This document shows, piece after piece, positions 39,994 to 48,069 of a stretch of DNA of 64,000 bases (its first letter is position 1; every line of letters starts with the position of its first letter). The notes beneath the pieces were generated by a model that saw only the letters and a program-made list of their open reading frames with translations, made no database searches and was not told the origin of the DNA. A program made the translations under genes and the position numbers. Origin of the DNA: Aquisphaera giovannonii (lineage in GTDB: Bacteria; Planctomycetota; Planctomycetia; Isosphaerales; Isosphaeraceae); assembly GCF_008087625.1 (NCBI RefSeq), contig NZ_CP042997.1, positions 3,906,001-3,970,000 of the forward strand, in the 5' to 3' direction.

Positions 39994-40245
39994 TGCCCCA
40001 CGCGTTCCGCCGGGAAGATCCTCTTGTGGCACCCAACATCTGCCAACCCGAGCTATCGTGGCGAGGCCCGTTACGCATGCGGCGCGGCTGGGAAGGACCG
40101 GGGCGAAGACCAATCCCCCTGGCGAGGCGAGCCGGCGGCGGGGGCCATGTTCCCATGACAAACCATGTCGTTTTCCTTCGCCGCGGCAGAGAGTGATAGC
40201 GGGTGATGAGGAACATCACGGGGCCGTGGCGAGAGGTCGTGGTTG
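39994..40245. other. Gene-free stretch before sigma-factor fusion
   Basis: About 250 bp without a supported gene. It must carry the promoter of the downstream sigma factor fusion, but I see no clear -35/-10 consensus. Confidence 0.35.
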
Positions 40246-42666
40246 ATGAACAAAGCAGGGCAGGGAGCCGGTTCGCCGTCTCTGGCACGAGAACTCGAGG
40301 CGATCTTTCGCGGCGCGGCGACGGCGGGCACGTCCGAAGGGCAGTTGATCGACCGGTTCGTGGACCGGGGGGATGAGGCGGCCTTCGCGGCGATCCTGAC
40401 CAGGCACGGCCCGATGGTGCTGGGCGTCTGCCGACGGATCCTCGGCCCGGGCGGCGACGCCGAGGACGCCTTCCAGGCCACCTTCCTCGTCCTGCTACGA
40501 CGAGCCCGCACGCTACGGCGATCGGAGCCGCTGGGCCCCTGGCTGCACGGCGTCGCCTGGAGAGTGGCGACGCGGTCGCGGGCGGACGGGCGGCGGCGTG
40601 ATCAGGACGCTGCCCGAGCCGTCCGGGACGCCATCTCGCACGAATCCCCGGCGATCGCCGCCGAACGCCTCGAACTGAAGGCCCTCGTCGATGAGGAGCT
40701 CGGCCGGCTCCCGGAGAAGTATCGGCTCCCGATCGTGCTCTGCGACCTGGAGGGCATGACCAAGGAGTCGGCCGCCGCGCGCCTGCGGTGGCGCCCCGGC
40801 GTCCTCCGAGGCCGACTCGAGCGGGCCCGCCTCAAGCTCCGCGACCGCCTCGCCCGGCGTGGCCTGGCACCGGCCGCGGCCGTCGCGATCGTCGAGGCGT
40901 GGAATGCCGCCGAAGCAGCCGTCCCGGGAGACCTGATCGCCGCCGCCCGAGCGGCCGCCTTCCGCGACCTGGCCGTCTCGGAGATCGCGGGAGTCGTCGC
41001 GCCCTCGGCGGCCGCCCGGCTGGCCGGCGGCTTCCTCGGCGCCCAGGCCCGGACGCGTACGCTCCTGGCGACAGCGACGGCCGTCGCGCTTGCGGTCGTC
41101 ACCTTCTCCGCGCTCGGGCTTGCCTCGGCGCCGCGATCTGCCGGACGGCGAGCCGAAGGGCCCAGGCCCAGGGCGGCGGCCCCGGCCCCACCGCCCGACG
41201 CGCCGACAGGCCAGCCCCGCGACTTCGAGCTCTCCGTCGTCGGCCCGGGCGGGAAGCCAATCCCGGATGCCAACGTCGAGATCCATGCCGTGCCCGGCCT
41301 GAAGGCGGAGGATGTCCGCCGGGGCCGGTTCGTGAAGAGTGGCCCCAGATTGAGCCTCGCCCGGGCAGACGGCGGCGGCAAGCTCGCCGTCCATTTCCCG
41401 GCCGGGTGCAAGGAGCTTGATCTCTTCATCGAGGCGCCCGGCCACGGCTTCTATCACGCCGGATGGTCGCCTCGCGGTCGATGGCCTTCCCCCGTCGAGT
41501 GGCCGACCCGCGAGCAGTCCGTCATCCCGGATCGCTTCACCGCCGAGCTCGAGCCGGGGTGGGCCGTGGGGGGCGTGGTCGTGGATTCGCAGGGCCGTCC
41601 CGTCGAGGGGGCGGAGGTGCGGTGCAAAGTATGGACGGCCCGACCCGGCGACTGGATCGCTCCGTACGAAGGAAATCAGCCCGCGACCGACCGCGAGGGC
41701 CGATGGCGGTTCGACAACGTCCCCAACTCGGTCAAGGCGCTCTACGTGATCGTCAGCCATCCCGCGTTCCGCCCGTTCTTCGGGCCGATCGAGGAGGCCC
41801 AGTACGGGCTGGCGAGAGGCGGCGGGCCGAGGGAGAAGATCGTCCTGCAACGCGGCGATTTCCTGTTCGGCAAGGTCACCGACGAGCGCGGACGCCCGAT
41901 CCATGGGGCGCGCGTGGAGGTACGACTCGAGCGGGACACGCGCGATGCCACTTCAGATGAGCACGGCATGTACCGGCTGAACGGCCTCGATGGTCGGATC
42001 TACTACATCCGCGCGTCGGCTCCTGGGAAGGGCCTGGACGAGAAAGGGCCATTCGAGCGGATCGAAGGCCCGATCGCTTTCACCCTGAAGCCCGGCCGCA
42101 AGATCCGAATCCGGGTCCTCGACGCCGGCGGCAATCCGCTGCCAGACACCGCGATCTTTCCGATGGTCTGGCGGGACAAATTCAGCTTCCCCGAAATCAA
42201 CCATGGGAATCGGTACACCGACAAGGATGGGGTCTGGGAGTGGAACGAGGCCCCGGAGGACGAGTTCCAGTTCGAAATCTGCCCTCCCGGAGGCATGGTG
42301 TTCCCCCGTCAGCGTATCAAGGCCCGCGAGGAGGAGTACGTCTTCCGATCGATCCCGCCGCTCGTGATCGCCGGCCGCATCATCGACGAGACGACGAAGC
42401 AGCCCATCCCCTCGGCCCGGATCAACCCGGGCGTCGAGTTCGCCGCCGAACCCGGCAGCGTCGCCTGGAATGATAAGCTCGCTCTGCCCTTACAAGCCGA
42501 CGGACGCTTCGAGTATCGCCCGCGGCGTGCGGAGGCGGGACACGGCCTCCGCATCGAGGCCGATGGCTACGAGCCGCAAACCACTCGGTGGTTCAAGAGC
42601 ACCGAGGGGAAGGTCGAGATCGAGGTCCGAATGAAGAAGGCCCGGGCGGCGAGGCCCGGGCCTTGA
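40246..42666 (+). CDS. ECF sigma factor fused to carboxypeptidase-regulatory-like domains
   Basis: The 806-residue protein starts at the ATG at 40246. Residues about 30-215 are a full ECF sigma: region 2 (HGPMVLGVCRRILGPGGDAEDAFQATFLVLLRRA, then LGPWLHGVAWRVATRSRADGRRR) and region 4 (LGRLPEKYRLPIVLCDLEGMTKESAAARLRWRPGVLRGRLERARLKLRDRL). A membrane helix follows at about 276-295 (LLATATAVALAVVTFSALGLAS). The remaining 500 residues contain beta-sandwich, carboxypeptidase-regulatory-like repeats (LSVVGPGGKPIPDANVEI; GGVVVDSQGRPVEGAEVRCKV; FGKVTDERGRPIHGARVEVRLERD; IAGRIIDETTKQPIPSARI). This architecture links transcription to an extracytoplasmic beta domain and is known from planctomycete ECF groups with long C-terminal extensions. 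Confidence 0.9.
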   Translation: MNKAGQGAGSPSLARELEAIFRGAATAGTSEGQLIDRFVDRGDEAAFAAILTRHGPMVLGVCRRILGPGGDAEDAFQATFLVLLRRARTLRRSEPLGPWLHGVAWRVATRSRADGRRRDQDAARAVRDAISHESPAIAAERLELKALVDEELGRLPEKYRLPIVLCDLEGMTKESAAARLRWRPGVLRGRLERARLKLRDRLARRGLAPAAAVAIVEAWNAAEAAVPGDLIAAARAAAFRDLAVSEIAGVVAPSAAARLAGGFLGAQARTRTLLATATAVALAVVTFSALGLASAPRSAGRRAEGPRPRAAAPAPPPDAPTGQPRDFELSVVGPGGKPIPDANVEIHAVPGLKAEDVRRGRFVKSGPRLSLARADGGGKLAVHFPAGCKELDLFIEAPGHGFYHAGWSPRGRWPSPVEWPTREQSVIPDRFTAELEPGWAVGGVVVDSQGRPVEGAEVRCKVWTARPGDWIAPYEGNQPATDREGRWRFDNVPNSVKALYVIVSHPAFRPFFGPIEEAQYGLARGGGPREKIVLQRGDFLFGKVTDERGRPIHGARVEVRLERDTRDATSDEHGMYRLNGLDGRIYYIRASAPGKGLDEKGPFERIEGPIAFTLKPGRKIRIRVLDAGGNPLPDTAIFPMVWRDKFSFPEINHGNRYTDKDGVWEWNEAPEDEFQFEICPPGGMVFPRQRIKAREEEYVFRSIPPLVIAGRIIDETTKQPIPSARINPGVEFAAEPGSVAWNDKLALPLQADGRFEYRPRRAEAGHGLRIEADGYEPQTTRWFKSTEGKVEIEVRMKKARAARPGP

Positions 42667-42696
42667 TTCACGGCTCATCTCATCCGCTTCCGCGGC

Positions 42697-46475: not shown

Positions 46476-46772
46476 ATGCAACAATACGCCGATCATCGTC
46501 CCTCGGTGGAATTGCTCGAATCCACCCACCTGTTCCCCGGCGTCTACCAGATGAAGGCGATCGGGCGGACGGCCGGCGATTTCGAACGGCGGGTGGTCGA
46601 GGCGGTGGTCTCGCAGCTCGCCGCCCCTTCGGACCTGGACTACTCGGTGCGGAGCACGCCGGGGGGCCGGCACGTGGCCGTCACGCTGGATATCACCGTC
46701 CAGAATGCGGAGCAGGTGCGGTCCATCTACGCCGAGGTCCGCGAGCTGGAAGGGCTTACGCTCCTCTTCTGA
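46476..46772 (+). CDS. DUF493 / YbeD-like regulatory domain protein
   Basis: The ATG at 46476 gives 98 residues with the DUF493 fold: LLESTHLFPGVYQMKAIGRTAGDFERRVVEAVVS, then DLDYSVRSTPGGRHVAVTLDITVQNAEQVRSIYAEVRELEGLTLLF. The family has an ACT-like ferredoxin fold; the E. coli member YbeD lies near lipoate synthesis genes and has no assigned role. AGAGGAG precedes the start. The neighbours here do not reveal its function. Confidence 0.9.
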   Translation: MQQYADHRPSVELLESTHLFPGVYQMKAIGRTAGDFERRVVEAVVSQLAAPSDLDYSVRSTPGGRHVAVTLDITVQNAEQVRSIYAEVRELEGLTLLF

Positions 46773-46935
46773 TCGGGGCGGGTGGGCGGTCGCGAATTTG
46801 CCGCCCGCCTTCGATTTCGCTTCCCCCGGCCCTCGCCGCGGCTATGATGCTCAGGCGGCGGGGGTCGAACCTCCCGGCCGTACGTGCAACGCGGTCGACC
46901 GATCCGCATGGCCCCCCTCAGGATCCCGGGAAGCG

Positions 46936-48069
46936 ATGACCGAAGCTTCAGCGACCCGCGCGGCACAGTGGATCGACCTGGCAAACTGCGACGACCCGCG
47001 CGACGCCGTGCACCAGGCCGTGGCCTGCCTGGCGCAGGGGGGCGTGGTGGCCGTGGCGAGCGAGGCCGCCTATCTCCTGGCGGCCAGCACGCTGAACGAG
47101 GGGGCCGTGAGTCGACTCCGGGCGATCTGCGGTGCGCCGGAAGGTGAGCCGCTGCCGCTCCTGGTGCGCGGGTGCGAGGAGGCGCTCGACTGGGCGCCGG
47201 CCCTGTCCTCGGCGGGACGTCGGCTGGCCCAGAGGGCCTGGCCCGGGCCGCTGGTGCTCCGCGTCCCGTCCGCCGCCGGCGAAGGGCTCTGCGGTCGCCT
47301 TCCCCGGGGCGTCCGCGACCTGGTGTCGCCCGGGGGCGAGCTCGCCCTCTCGTGCTCGGCGGAGCCCTTCCTGCGGGGCGTGGCGGACCTCATGCCCGGC
47401 CACCTGGCCACCGGGAGGCCGGCCGAGGGCCAGGACGTGGCCCTCGGCGCCGAGTCCCTGCGCGGCCTGGCCGGGGTGGACATGGTCGTCGACTCGGGCC
47501 CGGCCCGGCCCGGCGTGGAGAGCACGCACGTCCGGCTCGAGGGCGGGGGATGGTCGATCCTCCGCCGCGGGGCCATCGACGAGCGGGCCCTGGCCCGCAT
47601 GTCCTCCGTGATCCTGCTCTTCGTCTGCACGGGCAACACCTGCCGCAGCCCCATGGCGGAGGCGATCTGCAAGGGCCTGCTCGCCCGCAAGCTCGGGTGC
47701 AGGGCCGAGGAGCTGGAGCAGAAGGGGATCGTCGTGCTCTCGGCCGGGGTAGCCACGTCCGGCGGGTCACCCGCCACGAGCCAGGCCGTCGAGGTGCTCA
47801 GGGCACTGGGAGGCAGCCTGGAATCGCACCGCAGCCGGCGGGTCACCGCCGAGCTCGTCCGCCAGGCCGACCACCTCTTCGCGATGACCATCGACCACCT
47901 CGAGGCCCTCCTGAGCGTCGTCCCGGAGGCCGAGCCGTACGCGATGCTCCTGGACCCCCACGGCCGCGACGTCCCCGACCCCTTCGGCGCCGACCAGGAG
48001 GTCTACCGCCAGACCGCCGGCGCCATCGAGGCCATGCTCCGCGAGCGGCTCCGCGAGATCGGGCTCTGA
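46936..48069 (+). CDS. Sua5/YrdC-like domain fused to low-molecular-weight protein phosphatase
   Basis: The 377-residue protein has two parts. Residues about 12-215 resemble the Sua5/TsaC (YrdC) threonylcarbamoyl-AMP synthase fold: VVAVASEAAYLLAAS and the end GVESTHVRLEGGGWSILRRGAIDE are recognisable, but the nucleotide-binding KxR segment reads ICGAPEGEPLPLL, with the basic residues missing. Residues about 222-377 are a low-molecular-weight phosphotyrosine phosphatase with the P-loop FVCTGNTCRSPMAE (catalytic C and R) and the acid loop DVPDPFGAD. The fusion is known from Planctomycetes; the phosphatase half should be active. Confidence 0.87.
   Translation: MTEASATRAAQWIDLANCDDPRDAVHQAVACLAQGGVVAVASEAAYLLAASTLNEGAVSRLRAICGAPEGEPLPLLVRGCEEALDWAPALSSAGRRLAQRAWPGPLVLRVPSAAGEGLCGRLPRGVRDLVSPGGELALSCSAEPFLRGVADLMPGHLATGRPAEGQDVALGAESLRGLAGVDMVVDSGPARPGVESTHVRLEGGGWSILRRGAIDERALARMSSVILLFVCTGNTCRSPMAEAICKGLLARKLGCRAEELEQKGIVVLSAGVATSGGSPATSQAVEVLRALGGSLESHRSRRVTAELVRQADHLFAMTIDHLEALLSVVPEAEPYAMLLDPHGRDVPDPFGADQEVYRQTAGAIEAMLRERLREIGL

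What the first reader, a model, noticed from the sequence alone, without database searches (positions are those of the whole stretch)
40246..42666. Sigma factor, membrane helix and large beta-sandwich region in a single protein
A complete ECF sigma (regions 2 and 4) is joined through one membrane helix to about 500 residues of carboxypeptidase-regulatory-like repeats. A sigma factor tethered to the membrane with an extracytoplasmic sensor-like region would combine sensor and regulator without an anti-sigma factor. Long C-terminal extensions are known for planctomycete ECF groups, but how such a sigma is released or used is unclear.
Basis: partly seen in the sequence, partly recalled or inferred. 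Interest (0 to 1): 0.55.

Follow-up and report, generated by a model that had tools for sequence, protein, structure and literature searches.

The report
Membrane-tethered sigma factor with outside sensor
This gene encodes a transcription-starting sigma factor joined by one predicted membrane helix to a string of beta-sandwich domains that probably sit outside the cell; it is one of about fifty similar proteins in this planctomycete, and its outer part is also found on a different kind of bacterial receptor, which suggests that the sigma factor is itself part of a receptor.

Summary
Window 40246-42666 encodes one 806-residue protein: ECF sigma regions 2 and 4, a 67-residue linker, one hydrophobic helix (273-295), and about 480 residues of tandem carboxypeptidase-regulatory-like beta-sandwiches. 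It is not a singleton: among the own-genome loci I fetched, 51 ORFs join an ECF sigma to a C-terminal extension, and 43 of them have a clear hydrophobic stretch at the same place. Two conserved cysteines match the published planctomycete group ECF57. The strongest new evidence concerns the outer region. The same module (37-45% identity, nearly full length) also occurs in planctomycetes behind signal-peptide-like N-termini, and behind an M56 (BlaR1-type) membrane protease, mostly with a BlaI-type repressor gene nearby. On the module tree these contexts interchange repeatedly. So the region is probably extracytoplasmic and sensor-like, and the protein is best read as a one-protein receptor whose output is the sigma factor. 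How the sigma is released is not shown; regulated proteolysis is the likeliest route, by analogy. The target is about 280 residues shorter than its two closest paralogues. An upstream element shared with one paralogue hints at autoregulation but does not prove it. I rate it a new variant of a known kind.

The parts
40246..42666 (+). Whole gene: ECF sigma - linker - membrane helix - beta-sandwich ectodomain, 806 aa
   Evidence: Open frame; Pfam; continuous GC3
40399..40596 (+). Sigma-70 region 2 (residues 52-117)
   Evidence: PF04542, 1.8e-11
40687..40839 (+). Sigma-70 region 4 (residues 148-198)
   Evidence: PF08281, 1e-06
40429..40431 (+). Conserved Cys62 in region 2 (ECF57 hallmark)
   Evidence: At least 90% conserved in the own-genome alignments; hallmark described in PMC8999054 section 15
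40741..40743 (+). Conserved Cys166 in region 4 (ECF57 hallmark)
   Evidence: At least 90% conserved in the own-genome alignments
40861..41061 (+). Linker (residues 206-272), predicted helical, without Cys or His, presumed cytoplasmic
   Evidence: Alignment; AlphaFold model helices at 209-221, 228-244 and from 255 on
41062..41130 (+). Predicted membrane helix (residues 273-295)
   Evidence: Hydropathy; one continuous helix 255-294 in the model
41203..42663 (+). Predicted extracytoplasmic module: a row of beta-sandwiches (residues 320-806)
   Evidence: AlphaFold mean pLDDT 88.6; Foldseek's 50 listed PDB matches are surface or secreted proteins by title; homologous module behind signal-peptide-like and M56 N-termini
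40161..40188 (+). Bipartite upstream element AACC[AG]TG-N14-CG[AC][CG]GCA, candidate promoter of the gene itself
   Evidence: 13 of 14 fixed positions shared with the upstream of paralogue L003 and 14 of 14 with L065, against at most 10 in the other own-genome paralogues; strict pattern has 4 matches in the own genome, 2 of them before the target and L003, but the reversed control pattern also has 4
40231..40236 (+). Shine-Dalgarno-like GAGAGG, 9 nt before the ATG
   Evidence: Read from the sequence
42637..42664 (.). Perfect 11-bp hairpin overlapping the stop codon, between convergent genes; no T run follows
   Evidence: RNA fold -31.7 kcal/mol for 42625-42690, z -2.6

Best explanation
The protein is a latent, membrane-anchored sigma factor that acts as a one-protein receptor. 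The sigma domains and the linker face the cytoplasm, one helix (273-295) crosses the membrane, and the tandem beta-sandwiches face outward and sense a ligand, a partner protein or envelope damage. While anchored, the sigma factor is kept away from RNA polymerase or is held closed, perhaps by the linker and by the Cys62/Cys166 pair. On a signal the outer part is cut or rearranged, an intramembrane protease of the site-2 type cuts the helix, and the freed sigma factor starts transcription, possibly of its own gene too. Shown by computation: domain order, a single hydrophobic helix kept across the family, an outer module of beta-sandwiches of a kind known from surface proteins, and its exchange with BlaR1-type receptors. 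Inferred: membrane insertion, sensing, proteolytic release, autoregulation.
For: (1) The helix is kept: 43 of 51 own-genome ORFs, and 27 of 29 and 27 of 28 scored loci from other genomes (30 loci each). (2) The outer module is found on other N-termini. Of the 30 loci classified (36 matches were listed), 12 have a sigma domain (the target included), 13 an M56 protease, 4 a signal-peptide-like start, 1 (L081) is unassigned. Of 25 named-genome loci, 15 have M56, 8 a signal-peptide-like start, 1 sigma, 1 is a fragment; six of these are the same loci as. A BlaI-like ORF lies in 12 of the 15 M56 loci and in none of the 8 signal-peptide-like ones; Pfam confirms M56 in the 3 proteins tested and Penicillinase_R in the 4 small ORFs tested. 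(3) On a 46-row module tree the three N-terminal labels need 10 changes (2 would be the least possible), and starred branches force at least 3 for sigma. (4) The 50 listed PDB matches of the module (of 1104) are by title surface, extracellular or secreted proteins such as pilins, adhesins, S-layer proteins and complement. (5) K+R is higher before than after the helix in 25 against 12 of 51 (own genome), 19 against 2 of 29 and 17 against 5 of 28. (6) In Tuwongella immobilis, ECF sigma factors were recovered from the Triton or SDS fractions (PMC8567305, abstract and passages). (7) No anti-sigma domain in the protein; neither immediate neighbour looks like one. (8) Peptidase_M50 (site-2 type) is present in the genome, 12 matching stretches. 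(9) IutY of Pseudomonas putida is a sigma fused to a membrane anti-sigma part and activated by proteolysis (PMC8999054, passages).
Against: The target's own flanking charges do not favour the proposed orientation (2 against 3 K+R; net +3 against +4). The T. immobilis fractions are not specific: the housekeeping sigma paralogues SigA_1 and SigA_2 and RapA were in the SDS fraction too, three of the five ECFs were seen in a single experiment only, and I did not check that those ECFs are of this build. No protease site was found: A-x-A at the helix end is weakly enriched in this family (39 of 49, expected 31.2; 20 of 29, expected 14.8) but not in other families (11 of 28, expected 13.7), and in the target it is followed by Pro, which from recalled knowledge hinders signal peptidase I. 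No shared autoregulatory motif was found over 52 paralogue upstream regions; AAC-N16-17-CGT was in 2 of 52 (3 of 52 on the reverse strand, 3.7 by shuffling). The cysteine pair is rare in homologues from other families (2 of 28 by a loose pattern). The target lacks about 280 C-terminal residues of L002 and L003, so its outer part may be degenerate. The review I read proposes protein interaction and conformational change for ECF57, not proteolysis.
Confidence: 0.6

Rival explanations
1. The sigma factor works while anchored: it is active or inactive at the membrane by a conformational change (the Cys62/Cys166 pair, linker packing on regions 2 and 4) that the outer part controls through the helix, without being cut.
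For: The review of non-canonical ECFs favours conformational control for ECF57 and points to the two cysteines; both are at least 90% conserved in the own-genome alignments and found in 25 of 29 other loci of the family by a loose pattern. The pre-helix stretch and the helix form one long predicted helix, 255-294, which could pass on motion. No protease site was found.
Against: An anchored sigma factor would have to bring RNA polymerase and DNA to the membrane. The known fused case IutY is released by proteolysis. Homologues from other planctomycete families keep the helix (27 of 28) but mostly not the cysteine pair (2 of 28).
Confidence: 0.22
2. The helix is not inserted and the whole protein is cytoplasmic; the beta-sandwiches act as a protein-interaction platform, as proposed for WD40 extensions of ECF57.
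For: Alanine-rich helices are common in GC-rich genomes; the target's charges do not follow positive-inside; a few paralogues carry WD40 repeats (2 of 49); the ECF57 proposal.
Against: The same module is behind signal-peptide-like starts and behind BlaR1-type receptors. Only 3 of 51 paralogues have another such hydrophobic stretch in the C-terminal part. T. immobilis ECFs were found in detergent fractions, though not they alone.
Confidence: 0.13
3. The gene is a decaying or non-functional copy: a truncated relative of the longer paralogues L002 and L003 that no longer senses anything.
For: The target ends about 280 residues before L002 and L003 and has one of the longer end branches (1.11, median 0.43) on the module tree.
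Against: The frame is open with coding-type GC3 throughout; both sigma regions match nearly full length; an upstream element is shared with L003 and L065; the last modelled strand is complete.
Confidence: 0.05

Closest known systems
ECF57 group of planctomycete sigma factors (example WP_015250107.1, Singulisphaera acidiphila)
   Same: Planctomycete ECF sigma with long C-terminal extension; conserved cysteines in regions 2 and 4
   Different: The passages read name WD40 repeats and regulation by protein interaction; they do not mention a membrane helix or BlaR1-type ectodomains. The defining 2021 paper was not held, so this may be in its text.
IutY (ECF243), Pseudomonas putida
   Same: One protein with sigma factor and membrane-bound anti-sigma part; activated by proteolysis
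   Different: IutY is a sigma joined to its anti-sigma factor (FecR type, recalled); no FecR or other anti-sigma domain matched here
ECF48, ECF52, ECF53 of Actinobacteria (SCO4117)
   Same: Sigma factor joined to membrane helix and, in SCO4117, an outer domain; expected to be activated by proteolysis
   Different: They carry a zinc-finger anti-sigma part and one to two helices; the linker here has no Cys or His and no such Pfam match
BlaR1-BlaI type receptors (Peptidase_M56 with Penicillinase_R)
   Same: The same outer module stands behind the M56 membrane part, in the position of the BlaR1 sensor (position of the sensor recalled)
   Different: Output is a protease acting on a repressor; here it is a sigma factor. 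No penicillin-binding domain is among the Pfam matches of the target.

Membership tests
ECF57 | Two conserved cysteines, one in region 2 and one in region 4 | tested here: met
   Cys62 and Cys166, at least 90% conserved in the own-genome alignments; feature from PMC8999054 section 15
ECF57 | C-terminal extension, often with WD40-like repeats | tested here: inconclusive
   Long extension met, but of carboxypeptidase-regulatory type; PD40 in 4 and WD40 in 2 of 49 own-genome extensions
ECF57 | Place in the ECF57 branch of the 2021 classification (profile or tree) | not testable with these tools
   The classification paper and its models are not held
ECF sigma factor | Sigma regions 2 and 4 only | tested here: met
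   PF04542 and PF08281 above their cut-offs, TIGR02937 60.9 bits against 42.9
ECF48/52/53 or sigma with zinc-finger anti-sigma part | Zinc-binding anti-sigma domain between sigma and helix | tested here: not met
   No Pfam match at E 1 or less; residues 206-272 hold no Cys or His
IutY-type sigma/anti-sigma fusion | Recognisable anti-sigma part (FecR type) | tested here: not met
   No such match at E 1 or less
IutY-type sigma/anti-sigma fusion | Release by regulated intramembrane proteolysis | not testable with these tools
   Needs experiment; M50 matches are present in the genome
BlaR1 receptor | M56 metalloprotease domain | tested here: not met
   No M56 match in the target; only its outer module is shared

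The most novel reading that the evidence does not exclude
Planctomycetes run a large family (about fifty in this genome) of single-protein membrane receptors in which the sigma factor itself is the tethered transcription factor, comparable in logic to eukaryotic membrane-bound transcription factors that are cut free, and whose outer sensor domains are freely exchanged with BlaR1-type protease receptors, so that one signal can be wired either to repressor cleavage or to sigma release.
Probability: 0.45. Interest if true: 0.78.

Novelty: new variant of a known kind. Interest (0 to 1): 0.56.

Why it matters
If right, dozens of sigma factors per cell would be direct transmembrane receptors without anti-sigma factors, whereas the review I read lists IutY as the only such ECF in which activation by proteolysis has been characterised experimentally. 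The shared outer module offers a direct way to find the signal: the BlaI-BlaR1 pairs and the secreted versions should respond to, or bind, the same thing. It would also help to explain why many planctomycete ECF sigma factors come without a recognisable partner.

Tried and rejected
A promoter motif common to all own-genome paralogues: gapped 4-mer pairs and 6-mers over 52 upstream regions gave nothing convincing against shuffles; AAC-N16-17-CGT was at or below chance (2 of 52; 3 on the reverse strand; 3.7 by shuffling). The element before the target was picked out of an alignment after the fact. By 14 fixed positions only L003 (13) and L065 (14) stand out; L064 has 10 and L002 at most 9, no more than unrelated paralogues reach, although L002, L064 and L065 share the looser form CC[AG]TG-N14-CGNNGCA. 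The strict pattern is no commoner than its reversed control (4 and 4 in the own genome, 2 and 2 in G001).

A signal peptidase site as first cut: A-x-A is weakly enriched in this family in two sets but not in other families, and the target has Pro after it; not adopted.

An anti-sigma-like linker: no Pfam match. The sigma-linker-helix model resembles ECF sigma factors, several of them solved with anti-sigma factors; no conclusion drawn.

Regulon search: the pattern matches in the two genomes gave no clear target beyond the sigma genes themselves; one in G001:C18 lies at the start of an ORF that by eye is an AAA-type ATPase, left open.

Neighbourhood: L002 and L064 share, by eye, a GNAT-type ORF and a small ORF downstream on the other strand; not seen at the target, so not pursued.

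One search mislocated the helix in L113 and L141; one search repeats it with these and L150 set aside as not scorable.
Full report
What is there. The open frame 40246-42666 (ATG to TGA, 806 aa) carries Sigma70_r2 (52-117), Sigma70_r4_2 (148-198) and CarboxypepD_reg in three stretches; NCBIfam places it in the ECF sigma superfamily (TIGR02937, 60.9 bits, cut-off 42.9). Hydropathy gives one peak, within 270-297, maximum 2.01. GC3 stays at 0.83-0.88 along the gene, so one coding frame crosses the joint. The downstream gene is a convergent serine hydroxymethyltransferase; the upstream ORF on the same strand had no Pfam match at 0.001 and looks by eye like a mannose-6-phosphate isomerase. Neither looks like an anti-sigma factor; more distant genes were not examined for one. 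A perfect hairpin overlaps the stop codon.

It is one of many. A search of the own genome (10.5 Mb) gave 66 matching places at 1e-5 or better. From the loci I fetched (58, plus 5 longer versions) 60 ORFs matched the sigma part. I dropped nine: one duplicate fragment, the two pieces of L024 with an in-frame stop, and six sigma ORFs of 205 to 275 residues. The remaining 51 run on for 46 to 1156 residues after the helix position (median 422); 43 of 51 reach hydropathy 1.6 there and 49 of 51 reach 1.4. L046 (0.7) shows no helix, and L057 is a distant member. Only L060, L053 and L057 have a second such stretch. For 30 loci from six other genomes of the family 27 of the 29 scorable ones reach 1.6, and for 30 loci from ten genomes of other families 27 of 28. 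In a draw of 199 genomes over the phylum, own genome included, 26 had a match to the sigma-linker-helix profile at 1e-40 (at most 12 candidates per genome were scored, so counts are lower bounds). What follows the helix is varied: of 49 own-genome extensions scanned, CarboxypepD_reg 12, Big_1 10, DUF4198 6, PD40 4, SBP_bac_10 3, AhpC-TSA 3, WD40 2 (overlapping families, first 25 of 77 shown).

The outer module is shared with other receptors. Full-length relatives of the target are L002 (51%) and L003 (45%) in the own genome and L064 (48%) and L065 (46%) in a genome of the same genus. Beyond these, the search of 45 genomes of the family found the module without the sigma part. Reading those ORFs showed three contexts: an M56 metalloprotease N-terminus (L067, and the more distant own-genome L052), a signal-peptide-like N-terminus (L066, L068), and the sigma factor. 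A wider search gave matches in 18 of 45 genomes at 1e-25 (at most 35 candidates per genome scored): 36 places, 30 of them with loci. Of these 30, 12 have sigma (the target included), 13 M56, 4 a signal-peptide-like start and 1 is unassigned. In named genomes 25 loci were found: 15 M56, 8 signal-peptide-like, 1 sigma (Aquisphaera insulae), 1 fragment. A BlaI-like ORF is in 12 of the 15 M56 loci, in none of the 8 signal-peptide-like ones, and divergently beside the one sigma gene. Pfam confirms Peptidase_M56 in the three M56 ORFs tested and Penicillinase_R in the four small ORFs tested. In BlaR1 the C-terminal sensor is outside the cell (recalled), so both alternative contexts put the module outside.

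On a tree of 46 modules the labels sigma, M56 and signal peptide need 10 changes against a possible minimum of 2; starred branches force at least 3 changes for sigma. For example the sigma row L091 groups with four M56 rows at 97/94. One label (L081) rests on its likeness to L083. The labels are clustered more than shuffled ones, so exchange is repeated but not frequent. Its direction is not settled, because the root is at the midpoint only.

Structure. The model of residues 25-305 from 46 paralogues has mean pLDDT 85.5; the linker is helical and the pre-membrane stretch plus membrane helix form one helix, 255-294. Its leading PDB matches are ECF sigma factors. The model of residues 320-806 has mean pLDDT 88.6 and is nearly all strands and loops; the 50 PDB matches listed of 1104 are by title pilins, adhesins, S-layer and other surface or secreted proteins, at low TM-scores, that is, similar domains in other arrangements. 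The target stops about 280 residues before L002 and L003.

Orientation. K+R is higher on the sigma side of the helix in 25 against 12 of 51 (14 ties) in the own genome, 19 against 2 of 29 (8 ties) in the family and 17 against 5 of 28 (6 ties) elsewhere. The target itself has 2 against 3, which speaks against; its relatives and the shared module outweigh this in my judgement. In Tuwongella immobilis, ECF sigma factors were found in Triton X-100 or SDS fractions (PMC8567305, abstract and passages). This is soft support: three of the five named were seen in a single experiment, the housekeeping sigma paralogues and RapA were in the SDS fraction too, and I did not check that those ECFs have this build.

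Release. IutY is the characterised case of a sigma joined to a membrane part and activated by proteolysis, and ECF48, 52 and 53 are expected to work so (PMC8999054, passages). For ECF57 the same review favours a conformational change and protein interaction (section 15). The genome has M50 matches (12 stretches) and 18 M56 matches. A-x-A at the helix end is weakly enriched in this family (39 of 49, expected 31.2; 20 of 29, expected 14.8) but not in other families (11 of 28, expected 13.7), and the target's A-S-A is followed by Pro. I therefore name proteolysis as the likeliest route by analogy, not as shown.

Cysteines. Cys62 and Cys166 are at least 90% conserved in the own-genome alignments, and a loose pattern finds both in 25 of 29 other loci of the family but in 2 of 28 from other families. 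So the ECF57 mark fits this family, while the sigma-helix-extension build is wider.

Own promoter. An alignment of upstream regions of the five module-bearing sigma genes drew attention to a block CC[AG]TG-N14-CGNNGCA, ending 57 nt before the target's start. By 14 fixed positions, the target matches L003 at 13 and L065 at 14, L064 at 10, and the other own-genome paralogues, L002 among them, at 10 or fewer. The strict form has 4 matches in the own genome, two of them before the target and L003; the reversed control also has 4. So it is the position, not the number, that is notable. It may be the gene's own promoter; no further target gene was recognised.

Host. A contig of the genus-mate G001 has the length and match position of one of Aquisphaera insulae JC669, so the window is probably from Aquisphaera; this is inferred.

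Literature. Ten searches of the held library listed no paper that I recognised as describing sigma factors sharing ectodomains with BlaR1-type receptors; only asked for BlaR1, and it found nothing. ECF sigma factors with WD40 repeats in planctomycetes are well known (PMC8567305 and PMC11032199, passages; PMC8999054 section 15). The 2021 ECF reclassification and the 2012 and 2020 planctomycete surveys (seen as references) and a 2020 paper on planctomycete protein architectures (recalled) were not held, so a membrane helix in ECF57 may already be on record there. For this reason I call it a new variant of a known kind and not more.

Noticed in passing
G000:C1:3895460-3896308 and 3902197-3903075 (just upstream of the window; L053, L037): Two further sigma-plus-helix paralogues lie about 43 to 50 kb upstream of the target.
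   Followed up: partly
L024 (G000:C1:4850297-4851247): A paralogue with one in-frame TAG within the matched stretch; probably a pseudogene or a sequencing error.
   Followed up: no
L106 1809-2198 (G001, Aquisphaera insulae): A BlaI-like repressor ORF stands divergently beside a sigma gene with this module.
   Followed up: no
L110 3569-7983 (G000:C1, own genome): BlaI-like gene (Pfam) followed by an M56 protease joined to carboxypeptidase-regulatory-like repeats and, by eye, a redoxin-like end.
   Followed up: partly
window 46705-48069: One ORF that by eye joins a Sua5/YrdC-like part to a low-molecular-weight tyrosine phosphatase-like part.
   Followed up: no
window 40798-40818 (region 4, residues 185-191): The target, L002 and L003 read GVLRGRL or GALRGRL where the paralogue consensus is GTVxSRL, which may mean a different -35 preference.
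   Followed up: no
L141-L170 (other planctomycete families): The sigma-helix-extension build is kept in families whose members mostly lack the ECF57 cysteine pair (2 of 28), so the build is wider than that group mark.
   Followed up: partly
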